Source: Nautilia profundicola AmH (GTDB lineage: Bacteria > Campylobacterota > Campylobacteria > Campylobacterales > Nautiliaceae). Taken from it: a DNA stretch of 64,000 nucleotides. Location of the stretch: the NCBI RefSeq assembly GCF_000021725.1, contig NC_012115.1:707001-771000 (forward strand), read 5' to 3'. The translations under genes were made by a program, and so were the position numbers. Positions 6,016-31,843 of this stretch are shown piece by piece (position 1 is the stretch's first letter; each line of letters starts with the position of its first letter). The notes below the pieces were generated by a model, which was not told the origin of the DNA, did not search any database, and was given only the letters and a program-made list of their open reading frames with translations.

Positions 6016-6999
6016 ATGACATATGCTGAAGCAAAAGAAAAATTTGAAAAACTTTTTAATAACGAAATGAGCGAAGTTGAAGCAAAAGAACTGCTTGTAA
6101 GTCTATACGAAAAAGGCGAAGAAGCGGCGGAAATTGCCGCAGCAGCTGATGTAATGAGAGAGCACAGCATTAAACTTCCTGTAAGTGAAGAATTAAGAGA
6201 TAAGCTTATAGACATAGTCGGAACGGGCGGTGATAAAAGTCATAGTTTTAACATTTCTTCAACAACCGCTTTGCTTTTAGCAGCAGCAGGAAGCTATGTG
6301 GCAAAACACGGAAACAGAAGCATTACAAGCAAATCCGGAAGTGCGGATATGCTTGAAGCACTCGGAATCAATCTGAATTTGAGTCCTGAAAACCAGGTGA
6401 AAATGCTTGAGGAAACCGGTTTTACTTTTATATTTGCGATCAATCATCATCCGGCTATGAAATATATTATGCCGATTAGAAAATCACTTAGCCATAGGAC
6501 GATATTCAATATTTTAGGACCTCTTACAAACCCGGCCGGGGCGAGAAAATATCTGCTTGGGGTCTTTTCACCCGATTTTGTTGAAAAAATAGCAAGCGCG
6601 CTTGCACTTATGGATGTAAAAAGCGCAATGGTTGTAAGCAGTCTTGACGGAATGGATGAAATAAGTGTAGAAGCGCCTACGAAAGCAATATATTTTAACG
6701 GAGTGAATCTTAAAGACTTGGAAATAAGACCTGAAGCGTTCGGGCTTAAGGGCAAAAAAGAAAACCTGATAGGCGGTGATGCGAAAGAAAACGCCGAAAT
6801 CACAAAAGGAATATTAAGCGGAGAAATCAGGGATGATAAAAGAAACGCCGTACTATTAAACGCCGGGGCGGCACTGTTTGTTGACGGTAAGGTTAATTCT
6901 ATTGAAGACGGGATTAAAACGGCGGCCGAAGTTATAGACAGCGGCAGGGCGATAAAACATCTTGAGAAAATTATTCAAATCAGCAATAAACTTAATTGA
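6016..6999 (+). CDS. trpD: Anthranilate phosphoribosyltransferase
   Basis: It joins anthranilate to PRPP in tryptophan synthesis. Marks are GTGGDKSHSFNIS at residues 69-81 (PRPP diphosphate loop), KHGNRSITSKSGSADMLEALG at 97-117 (anthranilate and PRPP binding) and the ILGPLTNPA stretch. It is a full-length single-domain protein of 327 residues, not fused to a TrpG amidotransferase. AAGGAG lies before the ATG. No other trp genes are near. The stop codon falls inside the first unit of a five-unit heptamer repeat shared with the start region of tsaE. Confidence 0.97.
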   Translation: MTYAEAKEKFEKLFNNEMSEVEAKELLVSLYEKGEEAAEIAAAADVMREHSIKLPVSEELRDKLIDIVGTGGDKSHSFNISSTTALLLAAAGSYVAKHGNRSITSKSGSADMLEALGINLNLSPENQVKMLEETGFTFIFAINHHPAMKYIMPIRKSLSHRTIFNILGPLTNPAGARKYLLGVFSPDFVEKIASALALMDVKSAMVVSSLDGMDEISVEAPTKAIYFNGVNLKDLEIRPEAFGLKGKKENLIGGDAKENAEITKGILSGEIRDDKRNAVLLNAGAALFVDGKVNSIEDGIKTAAEVIDSGRAIKHLEKIIQISNKLN

Positions 7000-7028
7000 G
7001 AATGGAGAATGCAGAATTGAGAATTGAG
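6994..7028 (+). repeat. Short heptamer run (5 units of AATTGAG type) at the trpD/tsaE junction
   Basis: Five head-to-tail 7-mers: AATTGAG, AATGGAG, AATGCAG, AATTGAG, AATTGAG. The unit is the same as in the 52-copy array at 18813-19176 and the run at 31768-31795. The first unit supplies the TGA stop of trpD and the next units supply the ATG and N-terminal codons of tsaE. Confidence 0.9.
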
Positions 7029-7418
7029 GTTAACAGTTTAGAAGAACTAAGCAAAGTTGCGGAATGTATAAAAAAGAGCGACAAAAACATAGTGATTTTA
7101 AGCGGTACGCTCGGAAGTGGGAAAACGACGCTTGTTAAGGAATTCGTAAAAAGCCTCGGGCTGAAAGACGAGGTGACTTCCCCCACGTTTGCGATACAAA
7201 ACGTATATGACGATACTGTTTTTCATTATGATCTTTACAACAAAGGCGTTGATGAGTTTTTGGCTCTCGGGATGCTTGAAGAGCTTGAAAGAAACGGGTT
7301 TCATTTTATCGAATGGGGAGAAGATTTGGAAGATATATTAAAAACATACGGTTTTGAGTATTTAAAAATAACTATTACGGCAGAGGGTGCGAAAAGGATA
7401 TTTGAATGTCAGTCTTAG
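7002..7418 (+). CDS. tsaE: tRNA threonylcarbamoyladenosine biosynthesis ATPase TsaE
   Basis: TsaE is the ATPase that works with TsaB and TsaD to make t6A at position 37 of ANN-reading tRNAs. The P-loop is GTLGSGKTTL at residues 35-44. TSPTFAIQNVY and HYDLYN follow in the order typical of the YjeE family, with FIEWGE towards the end. The start is uncertain. The ATG at 7002 gives 138 residues but has no good ribosome site. A TTG at 7017 sits 9 bases after GGAG and would remove five repeat-encoded residues. It overlaps lptB by 13 bases; tsaE-lptB-rpoN is a recurrent Campylobacterota order. Confidence 0.92.
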   Translation: MENAELRIEVNSLEELSKVAECIKKSDKNIVILSGTLGSGKTTLVKEFVKSLGLKDEVTSPTFAIQNVYDDTVFHYDLYNKGVDEFLALGMLEELERNGFHFIEWGEDLEDILKTYGFEYLKITITAEGAKRIFECQS

Positions 7419-16533: not shown

Positions 16534-17114
16534 TGCAGGATATTATTAACTGGATAGTTTATAGTGTAGGGGATTTGGGATATATTGGAATATTTGTAAT
16601 GATGTTCCTTGAGAGCAGTTTGTTCCCTTTTCCGAGTGAAATTGTGATGGTTCCTGCCGGGTATCTTGCAAGTAAGGGGGAAATGAATCTTTTTGCGGCG
16701 ATATTAAGCGGTATTTTGGGTTCAGTTGCGGGTGCGTGGTTTAATTATATTATTGCAAAGAGTGCTGGAAGAAAAGTGGTGCTTAGATTTTTAAAAGAAC
16801 ATCATCTCGAAAAAATTGAGAAATTCTTCGAACGTCACGGTGAGATTTCCACTTTTAACGGAAGGCTGATACCGGGTGTTAGGCAGTATATTTCATTTCC
16901 TGCGGGACTTGCTAAAATGCATCCGGTTAAATTTAGCGTTTATACGGCACTTGGGGCCGGAATCTGGGTGGTCGTACTTACAATGCTTGGGTATTATATC
17001 GGGGAAAATCAGGAACTGGTACATAAATACATTAAGGAAATTACAATACTAACACTTTTAATATTAATTCTCATAACTTTTGTATATTGGAAAAAGAAAA
17101 AAGTTAAATTTTAA
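16533..17114 (+). CDS. DedA family membrane protein, copy 1
   Basis: DedA proteins are inner-membrane transporters; some flip undecaprenyl phosphate or other phospholipids. This 193-residue copy has the family hallmarks: FLESSLFPFPSEIVMVPAG near residue 25, and NGRLIPGVRQYISFPAG near 108, which retains both conserved arginines of the R-x3-P-x2-R motif. It starts at GTG with AAGGCGG upstream, coupled to the MFS gene. The 3' end overlaps the convergent nifX-like gene by 11 bases. A paralogue lies at 39218-39802. Confidence 0.92.
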   Translation: MQDIINWIVYSVGDLGYIGIFVMMFLESSLFPFPSEIVMVPAGYLASKGEMNLFAAILSGILGSVAGAWFNYIIAKSAGRKVVLRFLKEHHLEKIEKFFERHGEISTFNGRLIPGVRQYISFPAGLAKMHPVKFSVYTALGAGIWVVVLTMLGYYIGENQELVHKYIKEITILTLLILILITFVYWKKKKVKF

Positions 17115-17451
17115 AATTTTTAATAAAACTGTCTATGTCTGTTTCATCTGTTACGATTGTTTTAATACCTACATATTCAAGATTACCAAGCATACCTTCA
17201 CCAAACTCCCTTCCTACAAAAGCGTCAACACCTGCTTCTTTTAGCATTGGAGGTACTACTCTTCCCGTTCCAAGCCCGTGTTCTCCACAGTCTCCGTTTA
17301 ATTTGATATGTTTTTCCTGAACTTCTTTCATAACGGGATTTTCTAAATATATTTTTTCATTTGTATCTGTATCTACTATTAAAAATCCTTTTGAAAGTCC
17401 TATATGCTGAGCAATTGTTTTTTTATTATTTGTAGGAAAAGCGATTTTCAT
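17104..17451 (-). CDS. NifX/NifB-like dinitrogenase iron-molybdenum cofactor family protein, copy 1
   Basis: A 115-residue single-domain protein of the family that binds Fe-S or FeMo-cofactor precursors (NifX, NafY, NifB C-terminus). Features are MKIAFPTNNKKTIAQHIG at the start, GLGTGRVVPPML near 60 and REFGEGMLGNL near 80. There are no nitrogenase genes nearby, so the role is probably general metal-cluster handling rather than nitrogen fixation. It is clearly paralogous to the N-terminal part of the protein at 19228-19812. Its promoter carries the same paired palindromes as the DUF134 promoter, suggesting shared control. Confidence 0.9.
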   Translation of the reverse strand: MKIAFPTNNKKTIAQHIGLSKGFLIVDTDTNEKIYLENPVMKEVQEKHIKLNGDCGEHGLGTGRVVPPMLKEAGVDAFVGREFGEGMLGNLEYVGIKTIVTDETDIDSFIKNFKI

Positions 17452-17624: not shown

Positions 17625-18671
17625 ATGGAAAGCAGATTAAAACACTTTCCGGCACCTTTGTTTGCGGTTGTAATGGGTTTAACCGGTCTTGCAATTGCAT
17701 ATCAAAAGGCTGCTCATTTTTTCGGATATCCTAAAATTATAGGAACATCACTTGTTTATTTTGCAATTGCAGTATTTACTGTATTTGCTGTTACGTATCT
17801 TTTTAAACTTATTAAGTACCCTGAAGTTGTAAAACATGAATTTTCACATCCGATAAGAATTAATTTCTTTCCGGCAATTTCAATATGTTTATTATTATTT
17901 TCAATTGCTTTACATAAAATGTCGCCTACCGCATCAAAAATACTTTGGTATATTGGTGCACCGTTACATTTATTCTTTACATTATATGTAATAAGATATT
18001 GGATTGTTAAAAACCTTGAAATTCATCACAGTAACCCAGCTTGGTTCATTCCTATCGTAGGTAACGTATTGGTTCCGATTACAGGTGTTTATTATGGTGG
18101 AGTAGAAGTTGCACAGTTTTATTTTTCAATAGGTATCTTTTTCTGGGTGATTTTGTTTACGATTGTTTTATACAGAATCATTTTCCATCATCAGTTTCCG
18201 GCTAAGTTTTTACCGACACTATTTATATTTATAGCACCGGCAGCTGTTGGATTTATTTCTTATGTTAAAATAGCAGAAGGTATTGCGCATATTACTGGTG
18301 GAGCTGTTCATACTCAATATATTTTATTTGATTTCTTTGCGCATTTTCTTTATGATGTGGGACTTTTCTTTACATTTTTAGTGTTTTTTATGTTCAGACT
18401 GTTTGTAAAAGTTCCATATGCGATTACATGGTGGGCATATACATTCCCGATGGCGGCTATGACTATTGCGTCAATTTTAAACTATCACTTAAATAAAGTT
18501 GCAATTGAAAAAGGTATAATGAAAATAGATTATGTTTTCGGAATTCAAAAAGACGTACTATTTTATTATCTTTCAAATGCGCTTTTATGGTTTACTACAG
18601 CATTGATTGTTTATGTTGCTTATAAAACAATAATCGCAGCATTAAAAAGAGAAATCTGCGTACCTGAATAA
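17625..18671 (+). CDS. SLAC1/TehA-type (TDT family) anion channel or transporter
   Basis: A 348-residue membrane protein with about ten helices. The start LKHFPAPLFAVVMGLTGLAIAY is typical of the TDT/SLAC1 family, which carries anions, C4-dicarboxylates or sulfite or affects tellurite tolerance. The exact substrate is unknown. It is divergent from the nifX-like gene across a 173-base gap, with TATACT at 17583-17588 as a likely -10 and AGAAGGAG before the ATG. It is monocistronic, ending in a hairpin. Confidence 0.85.
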   Translation: MESRLKHFPAPLFAVVMGLTGLAIAYQKAAHFFGYPKIIGTSLVYFAIAVFTVFAVTYLFKLIKYPEVVKHEFSHPIRINFFPAISICLLLFSIALHKMSPTASKILWYIGAPLHLFFTLYVIRYWIVKNLEIHHSNPAWFIPIVGNVLVPITGVYYGGVEVAQFYFSIGIFFWVILFTIVLYRIIFHHQFPAKFLPTLFIFIAPAAVGFISYVKIAEGIAHITGGAVHTQYILFDFFAHFLYDVGLFFTFLVFFMFRLFVKVPYAITWWAYTFPMAAMTIASILNYHLNKVAIEKGIMKIDYVFGIQKDVLFYYLSNALLWFTTALIVYVAYKTIIAALKREICVPE

Positions 18672-18676
18672 TTTAA

Positions 18677-18697
18677 AAGAAGGCTTAAGGCCTTCTT
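18677..18697 (+). terminator. Hairpin after the SLAC1 gene
   Basis: AAGAAGGC, loop TTAAG, GCCTTCTT is a perfect 8-bp stem 5 bases after the stop. There is only a short T content after it, so termination may be imperfect. It is the first element of the 556-base gap up to 19228. Confidence 0.7.
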
Positions 18698-18780: not shown

Positions 18781-18797
18781 TTAGTGTCAGGCATTAT
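18781..18797 (+). repeat. REP-like palindrome, left boundary of the heptamer array
   Basis: TTAGTGTCAGGCATTAT, an imperfect palindrome. It matches the reverse complement of the right boundary copy (19176-19192) at 15 of 17 bases. Related copies are at 23592-23608 and 29295-29311. Confidence 0.75.
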
Positions 18798-18812
18798 AAT
18801 TAGCCGTCAACC

Positions 18813-19176
18813 ATTGAGAATTGAGAATTGAGAATTGAGAATTGAGAATTGAGAATTGAGAATTGAGAATTGAGAATTGAGAATTGAGAATTGAGAATTG
18901 AGAATTGAGAATTGAGAATTGAGAATTGAGAATTGAGAATTGAGAATTGAGAATTGAGAATTGAGAATTGAGAATTGAGAATTGAGAATTGAGAATTGAG
19001 AATTGAGAATTGAGAATTGAGAATTGAGAATTGAGAATTGAGAATTGAGAATTGAGAATTGAGAATTGAGAATTGAGAATTGAGAATTGAGAATTGAGAA
19101 TTGAGAATTGAGAATTGAGAATTGAGAATTGAGAATTGAGAATTGAGAATTGAGAATTGAGAATTGAGAATTGAGA
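18813..19176. repeat. Tandem array of 52 perfect ATTGAGA heptamers
   Basis: Counting line by line, 364 bases are exactly 52 head-to-tail copies of ATTGAGA with no mismatch. Because 7 is not a multiple of 3, all three minus-strand frames stay open and encode the same heptapeptide period (FSILNSQ). Long reading frames over this area (18800-19240 and 18807-19442, minus) are by-products and not genes. The array lies in the gap between the SLAC1 gene and the nifX-like gene with the Gly-rich tail, 15 bases inside the left palindrome and abutting the right one. Perfect homogeneity implies recent expansion or frequent length change by slippage. The same unit occurs in short runs at 6994-7028 and 31768-31795. 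Confidence 0.98.
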
Positions 19177-19192
19177 TAGTGCCAGACACTAA
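19176..19192 (-). repeat. REP-like palindrome, right boundary of the heptamer array
   Basis: ATAGTGCCAGACACTAA: arms TAGTG and CACTA around the 5-base loop CCAGA. It is inverted relative to 18781-18797, so the array is enclosed by 17-base inverted repeats. Confidence 0.8.
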
Positions 19193-19227
19193 TAAAGGAG
19201 CGAGTAAAAAAGAATAAAAGGAAGGAA

Positions 19228-19812
19228 TTAATCTTCCCATCCTCCTCTAAAACCGAATCCTCTACCAAAACCGTAACCTCTGCCTCTTCCGAATCCTGCT
19301 CCTCTACCTCTGCCAAAGCCTCTACCCATACCACGGCCGAAGCCCAGACCTCTACCGAATCCGTATCCGTAACCTCTGCCTCTGCCAAAGCCATATCCTC
19401 TACCGAAACCGTAACCTCTTGCAAATTCTTCGTTTTGTTCAAAATTAACTTCTCTCATTTCTCCCTCCTTAATATCGTTTAAAATTTCTTCAATATCTTT
19501 TTTATCTGTTTCATAATATGCAATGCCTTCTGCCTGAAGGTTTCTTGCCATACCTTCACCGAATTCGTCTGCTACTAAAACATCCACTCCTGCTTCAGCA
19601 AGAAGCGGTGGAATTATTCTTCCTGTACCAAGACCTCTGTTACCTTCCGGAAGATCTTTTAGGTTTATATGTTCTTCTTGAATTTTTTCCATTACAGGAT
19701 TAGTGATGTAAAATCTTTCGTTTGTATCGGTATCAACCACTAAAAAACCTTTTGCAAGACCTATATGTGGTGATAATGTTTTTTTGTTGTTTGTTGGAAA
19801 TGCTATTCTCAT
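19228..19812 (-). CDS. NifX/NifB-like protein with a long Gly/Arg/Phe-rich tail, copy 2
   Basis: A 194-residue protein. Residues 1-115 are a NifX-type domain closely similar to the 17104-17451 protein (MRIAFPTNNKKTLSPHIG, GLGTGRIIPPLL, DEFGEGMARNL). From about residue 130 the chain becomes a low-complexity tail of GFGRG and GYGFGRG units ending in RGGWED. Such Gly-rich ends occur in some Fe-S or metal-linked small proteins of anaerobes; the tail could bind nucleic acid or metal, or drive self-association, but this is inference. It lies just downstream of the DUF134 gene (20-base gap, GGAGGG ribosome site) and is probably co-transcribed with it. Confidence 0.88.
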   Translation of the reverse strand: MRIAFPTNNKKTLSPHIGLAKGFLVVDTDTNERFYITNPVMEKIQEEHINLKDLPEGNRGLGTGRIIPPLLAEAGVDVLVADEFGEGMARNLQAEGIAYYETDKKDIEEILNDIKEGEMREVNFEQNEEFARGYGFGRGYGFGRGRGYGYGFGRGLGFGRGMGRGFGRGRGAGFGRGRGYGFGRGFGFRGGWED

Positions 19813-20221: not shown

Positions 20222-21892
20222 ATGGAACTTGTTTATTTATGGATAGAAGATTATAAAAATATAAAACGTCAGGGGTTTACTTTTTCCCCAAGGTTTAAGT
20301 GTGAATTTAAACCCCAATATGATGAAAATGATAATTTAATTGCAGAAAAGAGCGAACTGATTATAGAAGAGAAAAAAGATTATATTAATATTTTTCCCGA
20401 TAATATCAACGTAACTGCAATTGTTGGAAAGAACGGGGCAGGGAAGAGTAGTGTTTTTGAAATTTTAAAATATCAAAATTATACTTTTTTAATTTTATAT
20501 GATACTAAAAAAAATTTTTTTTATATTGATAAAAAAAATAATATTAAAATCATATTGAAAAATGTGAGTAAAAAAATTGAGAATAAGAATTTATCAAATG
20601 TTTTTTTCTCACATAGTTCAGATATTTTAGATATATCACTTTTTTTTAATTCTAATAATAGTATTTACAATGTTTCAGACATTTTAACAAAAGATAATTT
20701 TGAGTATTTTTCACCATTGCATAAGCAAATGTTATTAGTAACTAATGGAATAACTTTTAATTTTCGTAATTTTTATAAGAGTGTTAATTCTTTACTTTTA
20801 AAGTATTTTTTAACAAATAAAATAAAAAATTATTTTTTTAATCCAAATATTTTTTATCTTGATAATTACGATGTGACATATATTATTTACAGGTTATCGA
20901 ATATATTATCATATTATTCGGATATTACAAATGAATTATTAAAAATAAATGAAAATAATATTTTTTATAATGAACTAAAGGAAAACAAAAAAATTGATTA
21001 TGTAATATATCTATATTGTTTCTTAAAACAATTTAAGATTGACAATGAAATTAATGATGATATTTTTTTATATAGTTTAAAAAATAAAATATTACCTGAA
21101 TTTAATTATTTACAAAGAAAATGTAGTTCATTAAAAGAAATTATTAATAAAATTTTAATAGTTTATAATAGTAAAGATAAAAAAATAGAGATTGATTTGA
21201 TGAAAAAAATACTAAATGATAATTTACTTCAAGATATTTTTTCTGAATTAATAAGTATAGAACTAATCGATACAAAATATAATAAAAATTATATTGATTT
21301 AAGTTCAGGAGAAAAAAATTTCTTATTAATATTAAGTATAATATTTGATGCTTTAGATAAGTTTAATTTATTTTTATTAGATGAGTTAGAAAATTTTATA
21401 CATCCAAATCTAATTAAAAATTTAATCAATGAAATATTAAAATTATTACATAATAAAAAAAACTTTTATCATTTAATTTTATCAACACACTCCCCATTTA
21501 TTCTTTCAGACATTCCAAAAGAAAATATCATTTTTATGAAAGATGGTAAAAATGTTAGTAATGAAGTTGATATTGAAACGTTTGGAGCTAATATTCATAC
21601 TCTTTTGACTCATGGATTTTTTATGGAAGACGGGCTTATGGGTGAGTATGCTAAAAGTCAAATTGATGAAGTTATTAAATATCTAAATCATGATGATTCT
21701 AAAATAAAATCTGACGATGAAGCTCAAAAATTAATCAATATTATTGGTGAGCCAATAATTAGAAAACAACTACAGAGAATGCTTGATTCTAAGAGATTAA
21801 ATAAAATTGATAAAATTGACAAAATTGATGAATTAGAAAAAGAAATAGAGCTTTTAAAAGCAAGAATTGAAATTTTAAGGAAAAAAAGTTGA
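20222..21892 (+). CDS. ptuA: PtuA-like AAA/ABC-type ATPase of a Septu-like defence system
   Basis: A 556-residue ABC-class ATPase of the SMC/OLD type. It opens with YLWIEDYKNIKRQGF, and the Walker A GKNGAGKSS is at residues 69-77. A long, very Asn/Lys/Ile-rich middle separates this from the signature LSSGEKN near 360, the Walker B LFLLDELENF near 383 and the H-loop LSTHSPF near 419. The C terminus (about 520-556) is a Lys/Glu coiled coil. No TOPRIM or nuclease motif is visible, which argues against OLD nucleases; the nuclease is the next gene. In Septu, PtuA senses invasion and controls PtuB. Codon use is much more AT-rich than neighbours, consistent with transfer. Naming rests on architecture and gene pairing. 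Confidence 0.8.
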   Translation: MELVYLWIEDYKNIKRQGFTFSPRFKCEFKPQYDENDNLIAEKSELIIEEKKDYINIFPDNINVTAIVGKNGAGKSSVFEILKYQNYTFLILYDTKKNFFYIDKKNNIKIILKNVSKKIENKNLSNVFFSHSSDILDISLFFNSNNSIYNVSDILTKDNFEYFSPLHKQMLLVTNGITFNFRNFYKSVNSLLLKYFLTNKIKNYFFNPNIFYLDNYDVTYIIYRLSNILSYYSDITNELLKINENNIFYNELKENKKIDYVIYLYCFLKQFKIDNEINDDIFLYSLKNKILPEFNYLQRKCSSLKEIINKILIVYNSKDKKIEIDLMKKILNDNLLQDIFSELISIELIDTKYNKNYIDLSSGEKNFLLILSIIFDALDKFNLFLLDELENFIHPNLIKNLINEILKLLHNKKNFYHLILSTHSPFILSDIPKENIIFMKDGKNVSNEVDIETFGANIHTLLTHGFFMEDGLMGEYAKSQIDEVIKYLNHDDSKIKSDDEAQKLINIIGEPIIRKQLQRMLDSKRLNKIDKIDKIDELEKEIELLKARIEILRKKS

Positions 21893-22788
21893 TGAGAATA
21901 ATTTTAAAAAAAGAAAATATAATAAAAAACTTTCGATACATCGTTTATAATAAAGTCTTTAAAACAGAAAAAACACAAAAACTAAAAAAGGATTTCATTG
22001 AGGTAATAAAGTATTTAAAAAAAATTTTTCCAAACCAAAATATACACGATTTTTTATTTTCTGATAATATTCATTCCTTAGCTACAACAATTGGTGAAAA
22101 ATCATTTCCTAATAATATAAAAGATAGAATTGATAATTTATATAATAAATTAAGAGGAGAATGGGGAAAGGAAATTGTCGAAATTACAGGTATCAAAGTT
22201 TGTCCTTATTGTAATAGAAATTATATATTTAATTATAAAGAAAACAATAATAATCTTAAAACTACAATAGAATTAGATCATTATTTTCCTAAAAGTAAAT
22301 ATCCATATTTAGCATTGAATCCTTATAATTTGATTCCTATTTGTCATACTTGTAATAAAAAAAAGAGTGATGAGAGTTTTAAAATTTATCCGTATAAAGA
22401 TAATATCGATGATTACTTTAAGTTTAAGTTTAAATTTGTAAATAATGAAATGAGTAAAGAGGATATAAAAAAATATTCTTTTTTCGATGAAAAATTCATA
22501 GAAATAGAAATAGAGGAAAAAACTTCATTGGATGAATGGTATAAAGAATATATTGAGGGTTTATATGCTGAACATAAAGATATTATAAGTGAAATGTTAT
22601 TGAGAGAACATATTTATCCTGAAAGTTTCATACAAGAACTTTACAACAATTACGGAAGATTGCTTTTTAATTCGATAGATGAAATTCAAGGACTAATTCA
22701 TTGTAATTATGTGGAAAAAGAAAAAATAAACAAACGTCCATTATCCAAATTTTTAAAAGACATTTCAGAAGAATTGGGACTTATATAG
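21892..22788 (+). CDS. ptuB: PtuB-like HNH endonuclease of a Septu-like defence system
   Basis: A 298-residue HNH nuclease. Zinc ligands are C104 and C107 (CPYC) and C151 and C154 (CHTC). The beta-beta-alpha metal core has D129-H130 in ELDHYFPKS, with N146 in the NPYNLIP loop. This resembles the HNH family of PtuB effectors. The ATG at 21892 overlaps the ptuA TGA (TGATG), so the pair is translationally coupled; a TTG at 21889 is less likely. It shares the low-GC codon use of ptuA. The end overlaps the sirtuin gene on the other strand by 8 bases. A related but uncharacterised ATPase-HNH pair remains possible. Confidence 0.8.
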   Translation: MRIILKKENIIKNFRYIVYNKVFKTEKTQKLKKDFIEVIKYLKKIFPNQNIHDFLFSDNIHSLATTIGEKSFPNNIKDRIDNLYNKLRGEWGKEIVEITGIKVCPYCNRNYIFNYKENNNNLKTTIELDHYFPKSKYPYLALNPYNLIPICHTCNKKKSDESFKIYPYKDNIDDYFKFKFKFVNNEMSKEDIKKYSFFDEKFIEIEIEEKTSLDEWYKEYIEGLYAEHKDIISEMLLREHIYPESFIQELYNNYGRLLFNSIDEIQGLIHCNYVEKEKINKRPLSKFLKDISEELGLI

Positions 22789-31768: not shown

Positions 31769-31795
31769 ATTGAGAATTGAGAATGTAGAATTGAG
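31768..31795 (+). repeat. Short heptamer run (4 units) between nifS and nifU
   Basis: AATTGAG, AATTGAG, AATGTAG, AATTGAG, beginning on the last base of the nifS stop and trailing into a degenerate AATTAGA. It is the same unit as the 52-copy array. Confidence 0.85.
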
Positions 31796-31843
31796 AATTA
31801 GAGACTTAATAACTTCAATAATTTATAAATACAAGGAGATAAA

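What the first reader, a model, noticed from the sequence alone, without database searches (positions are those of the whole stretch)
18781..19192. Fifty-two perfect heptamers enclosed by inverted REP-like palindromes
Seen directly: 364 bases are exactly 52 copies of ATTGAGA, with no variant unit, lying between two 17-base imperfect palindromes in opposite orientation (15 of 17 matching). Cyanobacterial short tandem heptamer repeats are a known analogue, but enclosure by REP-type palindromes gives this the look of a defined element (412 bases) rather than simple slippage. Perfect homogeneity suggests active gain and loss of units. It might act as a length-variable spacer or regulator for the downstream metal gene cluster, as a protein-binding array, or as the product of a transposition-linked process. 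The function is inference.
Basis: partly seen in the sequence, partly recalled or inferred. Interest (0 to 1): 0.8.

Follow-up and report, generated by a model that had tools for sequence, protein, structure and literature searches.

The report
Heptamer array beside a REP hairpin
A vent bacterium carries 52 perfect copies of a 7-base word ending beside a small hairpin repeat; two other long 7-base arrays found in the same genome end beside the same hairpin, suggesting the hairpin marks where such arrays grow.

Summary

The heptamer forms 43 further short tracts, nearly all without palindromes, so enclosure does not define it. The palindrome is a dispersed REP-like family: 78 collected sites with at most one mismatch, one upstream of a RAYT-like gene.

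The two are nevertheless linked. The three longest arrays found (52 ATTGAGA, 33 ACCATTG, 16 AACCATC) each end 1-2 bases from a REP core, on the same REP side. Five of 48 tracts abut a REP, against 0.43 expected (post hoc P about 8e-5).

Most likely: 7-base slippage arrays expand at the foot of a REP hairpin that stalls replication. That mechanism is inferred.

The site lies beyond the 3' ends of two convergent genes, so a promoter role for the metal gene is unlikely. Two relatives do not clearly show the coupling. ATTGAGA arrays elsewhere lack flanking inverted repeats, though 7 of 114 have a hairpin just after them.

The parts
18813..19176 (+). 52 perfect tandem copies of ATTGAGA
18781..18797 (-). 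left REP-like palindrome (TTAGTGTCAGGCATTAT), degenerate copy, inverted relative to the right one
   Evidence: does not fold better than shuffles
19176..19192 (+). right REP-like palindrome (TAGTGCCAGACACTAA at 19177-19192), exact consensus core; the array ends at its foot
18803..18812 (+). leader motif GCCGTCAACC; similar motifs lie near REPs at 184, 364, 396 and 1229 kb
   Evidence: by eye
19193..19225 (+). purine-rich tail after the REP, resembling blocks after REPs at 184, 271, 364 and 396 kb
   Evidence: by eye
17625..18671 (+). left neighbour: SLAC1/TDT family transporter, converging on the array
18677..18697 (+). 8-bp perfect stem (AAGAAGGC/GCCTTCTT) after the transporter gene, possible terminator
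   Evidence: sequence, by eye; not called by the scan
19228..19812 (-). right neighbour: Nitro_FeMo-Co domain protein with Gly/Arg/Phe-rich tail, converging on the array
19219..19238 (-). terminator-like stem overlapping the end of the Nitro_FeMo-Co gene, before the array
18800..19240 (-). open frame of 146 aa through the array (ILNSQFS heptad); judged spurious
6995..7029 (+). short degenerate tract of the same heptamer, no REP-like site within 200 nt
31769..31796 (+). short tract of the same heptamer between two co-directed genes; nearest REP-like hit is over 2 kb away

Best explanation
The array is a heptanucleotide simple-sequence repeat that has grown at the foot of a REP-like hairpin. The genome scatters short 7-base tracts (shown). 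It also carries a dispersed REP-like palindrome family and one RAYT-like transposase gene with a copy upstream (shown). Three tracts that lie directly against a REP are expanded to 16-52 identical units (shown). I infer that the REP forms a hairpin on single-stranded DNA at the fork, the polymerase stalls there, and the nascent strand slips back in 7-base steps, so units are added next to the hairpin. Perfect homogeneity would then mean recent growth and a changeable copy number (inferred). No effect on gene expression is needed; the site lies between two convergent genes, beyond terminator-like stems.
For: Period 7 stands out: in 464 kb of this genome 19 tracts at period 7 (one masked run left out) against 0-1 at each other period from 3 to 13; one shuffle of each stretch gave 0 at period 7. 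Three long pure arrays of different unit (52 ATTGAGA; 33 ACCATTG at 396419-396649; 16 AACCATC at 1426655-1426766) each end 1-2 nt from a REP core, on the 5' side of AGTGMCAGACACT. 5 of 48 tracts found by genome-wide pattern searches lie within 5 nt of a REP; 0.43 expected with 105 kb of intergenic DNA (P 8e-5) or 0.75 with 60 kb (P 1e-3); that the three longest are all among the five has P 6e-4. 6 of 102 REP-like sites have period 7 in the 30-nt 5' flank against 0-1 for lags 5, 6, 8-11. The right REP folds as DNA. In 6 of 7 loci the array precedes the REP in the direction of fork travel (P 0.06; loci oriented by eye), while REPs overall show no such bias. Outside this genome, ATTGAGA arrays of five or more units have a hairpin of score 10 or more in the 40 nt after them in 7 of 114 cases, before them in 0 of 114, against 2 of 224 random places (Fisher P 0.008; a 19-unit array in L247 runs straight into a 38-nt hairpin). 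Hairpin-provoked slippage with short direct repeats is shown in vitro for P. abyssi polymerases (abstract of PMC4134008); a polymerase contact length of about 7 nt was proposed for bacterial heptamer repeats (Mrazek 2007, as cited in PMC4679880, and PMC4692102).
Against: The coupling is not clear in relatives: of 27 REP-like sites from two same-genus genomes one just reaches the period-7 threshold in the 5' flank, as a diffuse A/T match, and one in the 3' flank; L200 in G019 has degenerate heptamers before its REP by eye only; none of 15 heptamer loci from five relatives has a REP-like site in its roughly 1-kb stretch. 43 of 48 tracts are not at a REP by the call's criterion, so a hairpin is not needed for heptamers to arise. 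One REP-linked tract (1229 kb) is on the other REP side, and at 1126 kb the tract is about equally near two REPs. The left REP and the whole 421-nt region do not fold better than shuffles. The hairpins after arrays in other genomes may simply be terminators. The statistics are post hoc on small numbers. No slippage was observed; one genome of the species, no second strain.
Confidence: 0.5

Rival explanations
1. Ordinary heptanucleotide slippage with no role for the REPs. The array is one of some fifty dispersed heptamer tracts that happened to run away; REPs are nearby because both accumulate in non-coding gaps.
For: 43 of 48 tracts are not within 5 nt of a listed REP. The same ATTGAGA x 5 is found in many phyla, and of 114 such arrays with both flanks none has inverted repeats scoring 12 or more across the array, against 2 in shuffled flank pairs. 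Arrays of the reversed heptamer also occur in other genomes of the phylum (control columns).
Against: Abutment is to 1-2 nt, on one REP side, in long arrays of three different units, and exceeds random placement in intergenic DNA.
Confidence: 0.3
2. RAYT-driven growth. The Y1 transposase that recognises the REP cuts at its foot, and repeated cutting and resynthesis adds 7-base units, so the array is a product of REP/RAYT biochemistry.
For: One RAYT-like gene with a REP core about 50 nt upstream of its start codon; the same order in two relatives. Long arrays end at the REP foot to within 1-2 nt.
Against: The two relatives keep the RAYT-like gene and REPs but lack clear REP-linked arrays. Short heptamer tracts form without REPs. 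Nothing is known here of where this enzyme cuts; its NCBIfam score is below the family cut-off.
Confidence: 0.12
3. A functional element: a length-variable spacer, transcription barrier or protein-binding array between two convergent genes.
For: Position between convergent 3' ends; homogeneous array; 53 promoter-like matches against 4.7 in shuffles, nearly all one per unit and so a consequence of the repeat.
Against: Neither neighbour reads away from the array, and stems that could terminate transcription lie between each gene end and the array. The other long arrays found lie in other gene settings with other units.
Confidence: 0.06
4. Assembly or cloning artefact in copy number.
For: Single published assembly by whole-genome shotgun with small and medium insert libraries and the Celera Assembler (passage of PMC2628731); long perfect repeats are error-prone.
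Against: At 412 bases the region would fit inside one conventional long read of that period (read lengths recalled, not from a call). Two other long perfect arrays in the same genome also end at a REP.
Confidence: 0.08

Closest known systems
Bacterial heptanucleotide simple-sequence repeats (long SSRs; TAACTGA repeats of Beggiatoaceae, PMC4679880; GGGAATC and GGGGA(C/T)T of Xanthomonas and Nostoc, PMC4692102; cyanobacterial STRR, recalled)
   Same: Unit of 7, dispersed tracts, a few long arrays; TAACTGA arrays reach 43 copies in other groups (abstract). Many ATTGAGA tracts here sit at junctions of co-directed genes, as TAACTGA lies in front of start codons.
   Different: Unit sequence; here several unit families occur and the three longest arrays found stop at a REP. 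I saw no mention of such coupling in the abstract, introduction and passages read.
REP/RAYT systems (GTAG REPs, REPtrons; passages of PMC2817692 and PMC3733652)
   Same: Dispersed short palindromes, many just after genes, with a Y1 (IS200-like) transposase gene next to one copy.
   Different: No GTAG or CGTC tag; short stem; REP only upstream of the RAYT-like gene.
REPINs (passages of PMC3116915)
   Same: Two REPs in inverted orientation.
   Different: 378 nt between arms, no excess folding, and no second copy of this inverted pair around heptamers among the sites examined.
Small dispersed repeats of Nostoc (Elhai 2008; recalled, paper not held)
   Same: Recalled: small hairpin elements often embedded in tandem heptamers.
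   Different: Here the array lies on one side of the hairpin, and a copy of the hairpin stands by a transposase gene.

Membership tests
Heptanucleotide simple-sequence repeat | head-to-tail 7-nt units above chance | tested here: met
Heptanucleotide simple-sequence repeat | dispersed tracts of the unit elsewhere in the genome | tested here: met
   44 loci, 22 on each strand, at most 1 mismatch in 14; reversed control 1 hit
Heptanucleotide simple-sequence repeat | copy number varies between strains or cells | not testable with these tools
   one genome of the species held
REP (repetitive extragenic palindrome) | short palindrome in many, mostly extragenic, copies | tested here: met
   62 forward and 62 reverse hits at up to 3 mismatches (a palindrome can count twice; some are chance), controls 6 and 9; 78 collected sites at up to 1 mismatch; extragenic place judged by eye
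REP (GTAG or CGTC super-family) | GTAG or CGTC tag at one end of the palindrome | tested here: not met
   GTAG at or beside the core in 2 of 78 sites, CGTC in 0 of 78; CGTC-like motifs 10-46 nt away from a few
RAYT | Y1 (IS200-like) transposase domain | tested here: met
   PF01797 33.5 bits, cut-off 23
RAYT | NCBIfam REP-associated tyrosine transposase over cut-off | tested here: not met
   NF047646 50.3 bits, cut-off 80
RAYT | gene flanked by two inverted REPs | tested here: not met
   one REP core and, by eye, a truncated second one, both upstream
REPIN | two inverted REPs forming one long hairpin, repeated as a unit | tested here: not met
   no excess folding, z 0.21; inverted pair around heptamers seen once among 102 REP-like sites
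Protein-coding heptad repeat | evidence of a real coding frame | tested here: not met
   all three minus frames are open because the unit holds no stop on that strand; the only Pfam hit is DASH_Hsk3, 29.1 bits with cut-off 24 but no single stretch passing, taken as low complexity

The most novel reading that the evidence does not exclude
REP hairpins in this genome act as site-specific growth points for heptamer arrays: the hairpin foot, possibly cut by the RAYT-like enzyme, fixes one end of the array and units of any suitable 7-base sequence are added there, giving a bacterial counterpart of a fork- or nick-driven minisatellite generator.
Probability: 0.15. Interest if true: 0.8.

Novelty: new variant of a known kind. 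Interest (0 to 1): 0.5.

Why it matters
Why bacterial tandem repeats favour a unit of seven is, in the texts seen here, answered only by a polymerase-contact idea. A genome in which the three longest heptamer arrays found stop at one kind of hairpin, on one side, gives natural sites to test what sets the place, direction and step of array growth. It would also tie REP/RAYT elements to simple-sequence instability.

Tried and rejected
Reverse transcriptase as a source of tandem repeats: no PF00078 match at E 0.001 in the genome, rejected. Coding array: rejected. The same call did show hairpins after, not before, some arrays (7 and 0 of 114; random 2 of 224), looked at again. REP inserted into a ready-made array: rejected because at the three long arrays the other side of the REP holds no heptamers. 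Empty-site comparison at this locus: in relatives the transporter query gave matches of 50-55% identity or weaker, like its own paralogue at 432 kb (54%); their neighbourhoods were not read and the other neighbour was not searched, so no comparison was made. Promoter role for the metal gene: rejected from gene direction. Long arrays of this unit in the phylum: 7 of 397 genomes have four exact ATTGAGA units in a row; in the other six each listed place is a single match, that is four units. The statement 'three longest found' rests on two genome-wide pattern families, 102 REP-like contexts and a 464-kb sample, not on a whole-genome repeat scan; long arrays of other units could have been missed, and REP contexts were searched more thoroughly than the rest.

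Full report
What is there. Window 18813-19176 is exactly 52 copies of ATTGAGA. To its left lie a 15-nt leader holding GCCGTCAACC and a degenerate palindrome (18781-18797); to its right lies a consensus palindrome, TAGTGCCAGACACTAA (19177-19192). The two arms match at 15 of 17. The genome is one contig of 1,676,444 bp, the size given for Nautilia profundicola AmH, CP001279 (passages of PMC2628731); the identification rests on that size alone.

Setting. The left gene (17625-18671, +) is a SLAC1/TDT transporter; the right gene (19228-19812, -) is a Nitro_FeMo-Co domain protein. They converge on the array. A perfect 8-bp stem follows the transporter (18677-18697, by eye) and a terminator-like stem overlaps the end of the other gene. 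The array is therefore downstream of both genes.

The heptamer. Two ATTGAGA units with at most one mismatch in 14 occur at 44 places, 22 on each strand, with one hit for the reversed control. Apart from the window array these are tracts of about 2-5 units, many mixed with ATGGAGA and other variants. With genes called roughly from open frames, 29 of the 44 lie outside a long frame: 21 between co-directed genes and in their direction, 7 between divergent genes, 1 against two co-directed genes, none between convergent genes. 15 overlap a frame, among them the window array (a spurious minus-strand frame) and alaS (tallied by hand). The ATTGAGA strand is + in 16 of 22 loci before 840 kb and - in 16 of 22 after it (positions); in the sampled stretches the GC skew changes sign between about 800 and 850 kb, and gene direction may explain the bias. 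In a 464-kb sample 19 tracts have period 7 and 0-1 any other period from 3 to 13, one masked run left out. At a looser threshold there are 28 period-7 tracts, of several unit families (ATTGAGA/ATGGAGA, AAAATGG, AAAAGTG, ATCAACC/ATTAACT), against 0-7 for other periods from 4 to 12; 26 of 28 have no REP-like site within 200 nt.

The palindrome. Its 16-mer has 62 hits per strand at up to 3 mismatches in this genome (controls 6 and 9; palindromes can count twice). I collected 102 REP-like sites at up to 2 mismatches of a 13-base core, some of them chance matches inside genes; 78 have at most one mismatch. Many stand just after genes (by eye). A Y1 transposase gene at 388 kb has an exact core about 50 nt before its start codon and, by eye, a truncated second one after it, still upstream of the gene; the same order is seen in same-genus genomes G018 and G019 (REP core and gene start). 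The protein matches PF01797 over the cut-off and the RAYT model NF047646 below its cut-off. By the defining features seen in passages of PMC2817692 and PMC3733652 it is only RAYT-like: two-sided inverted flanking is not met, and a GTAG or CGTC tag is at the core in 2 and 0 of 78 sites.

The link. ACCATTG x 33 (396419-396649) and AACCATC x 16 (1426655-1426766) each end 1-2 nt from a REP core. CATTGAC, three units and a partial fourth, lies between two direct REPs at 244520 and 244572. AATCAAC x 3 lies between two direct REPs at 1126666 and 1126707, about equally near both. ATTGAGA tracts at 1452443 and 1185722 touch REPs, the latter a diverged copy not in the list of 102. The arrays are on the 5' side of AGTGMCAGACACT (at 1126 kb of one REP, and on the 3' side of the other) except for a two-unit tract at 1229188. 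A genome-wide search for CATYRAC x 3 found four places, three of them against REPs; the fourth, at 1029596, has no REP-like site within 200 nt. Of the 48 tracts from these searches 5 are within 5 nt of a REP; 0.43 expected with 105 kb of intergenic DNA (P 8e-5), 0.75 with 60 kb (P 1e-3); the three longest are all among the five (P 6e-4). These tests are post hoc and treat tracts as independent. Period 7 reaches 0.65 identity in the 30-nt 5' flank of 6 of 102 sites, lags 5, 6 and 8-11 in 0-1; in the 3' flank 3, the other lags 0-3.

Direction. Where array and REP touch, the array comes first in the direction of fork travel in 6 of 7 loci (one-sided P 0.06; orientation read by eye); the exception is 1126 kb. 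Counting 1229 kb as well gives 7 of 8 (P 0.035). REPs overall are not so biased: 18 + and 23 - before 840 kb, 15 + and 22 - after.

Relatives and other phyla. In the family 6 of 21 genomes hold three exact ATTGAGA units; in the phylum 7 of 397 hold four. Of 27 REP-like sites from G018 and G019 (17 of 18 G018 hits and 7 of 14 G019 hits were fetched) one just reaches the period-7 threshold in the 5' flank, a diffuse A/T match, and one in the 3' flank; L200 in G019 has degenerate heptamers against its REP by eye. None of 15 heptamer loci from G018, G019, G001, G002 and G014 has a REP-like site in its roughly 1-kb stretch. The G018 locus that matches the 396-kb locus (after a tsf-like gene, name recalled) keeps REP-like sites but has no long array, so at this one locus the array has changed faster than the REPs. 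A hairpin scoring 10 or more follows the array within 40 nt in 7 of 114 and precedes it in 0 of 114; random places give 2 of 224 (Fisher P 0.008). In L247, an Anaerolineales contig, a 19-unit array runs straight into a 38-nt hairpin. These hairpins may be terminators, but the side agrees with the window, where the folding REP also follows ATTGAGA.

Reading. Anatomy and the REP link are shown for this genome. That a hairpin stall makes the polymerase slip in 7-base steps is inferred, with in vitro precedent for hairpin-provoked slippage (abstract of PMC4134008) and a published guess about why seven. RAYT-driven growth is possible but without direct support. I saw no mention of REP-bounded heptamer arrays in the listings of searches or in the passages opened; subscription papers were mostly out of reach, including Elhai 2008 (recalled: small hairpin repeats embedded in tandem heptamers in Nostoc). 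That recalled precedent lowers the novelty.

Noticed in passing
G000:C1:109809-109822 (L082), alaS: Heptamer-like sequence inside the alaS frame goes with about 7 residues in a loop that G018 lacks; G014 has a different insert at the same loop.
   Followed up: partly
G000:C1:434981, 515906, 516576, 804737, 1392084: Further heptamer tracts inside long open frames; by sequence the first lies in a TruB-like frame and the next two in a HypF-like frame (names from recall, no family search).
   Followed up: no
G000:C1:184336-184588, 271386-271951, 363826-364096, 396128-396665: Composite arrangements of three or more REP-like sites with purine-rich blocks and, in most, a GCCGTCAA-like leader; look like BIME-type mosaics (term recalled).
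   Followed up: partly
L247, GTDB contig JAUCGA010000037.1 (Anaerolineales): 19 pure ATTGAGA units followed at once by a strong 38-nt hairpin; a possible independent case of array growth against a hairpin.
   Followed up: partly
window 19228-19812: Nitro_FeMo-Co domain protein with a long Gly/Arg/Phe-rich tail; a shorter paralogue without the tail lies at 17104-17451.
   Followed up: no
control columns (e.g. G205, G238): Arrays of the reversed heptamer occur in several other genomes of the phylum, so other heptamers also form arrays there.
   Followed up: no
window 20222-22788: Adjacent frames for a protein with a GKNGAGKS motif and a protein with CxxC pairs, HNH-like; may be a defence pair. 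Judged from the translation only.
   Followed up: no
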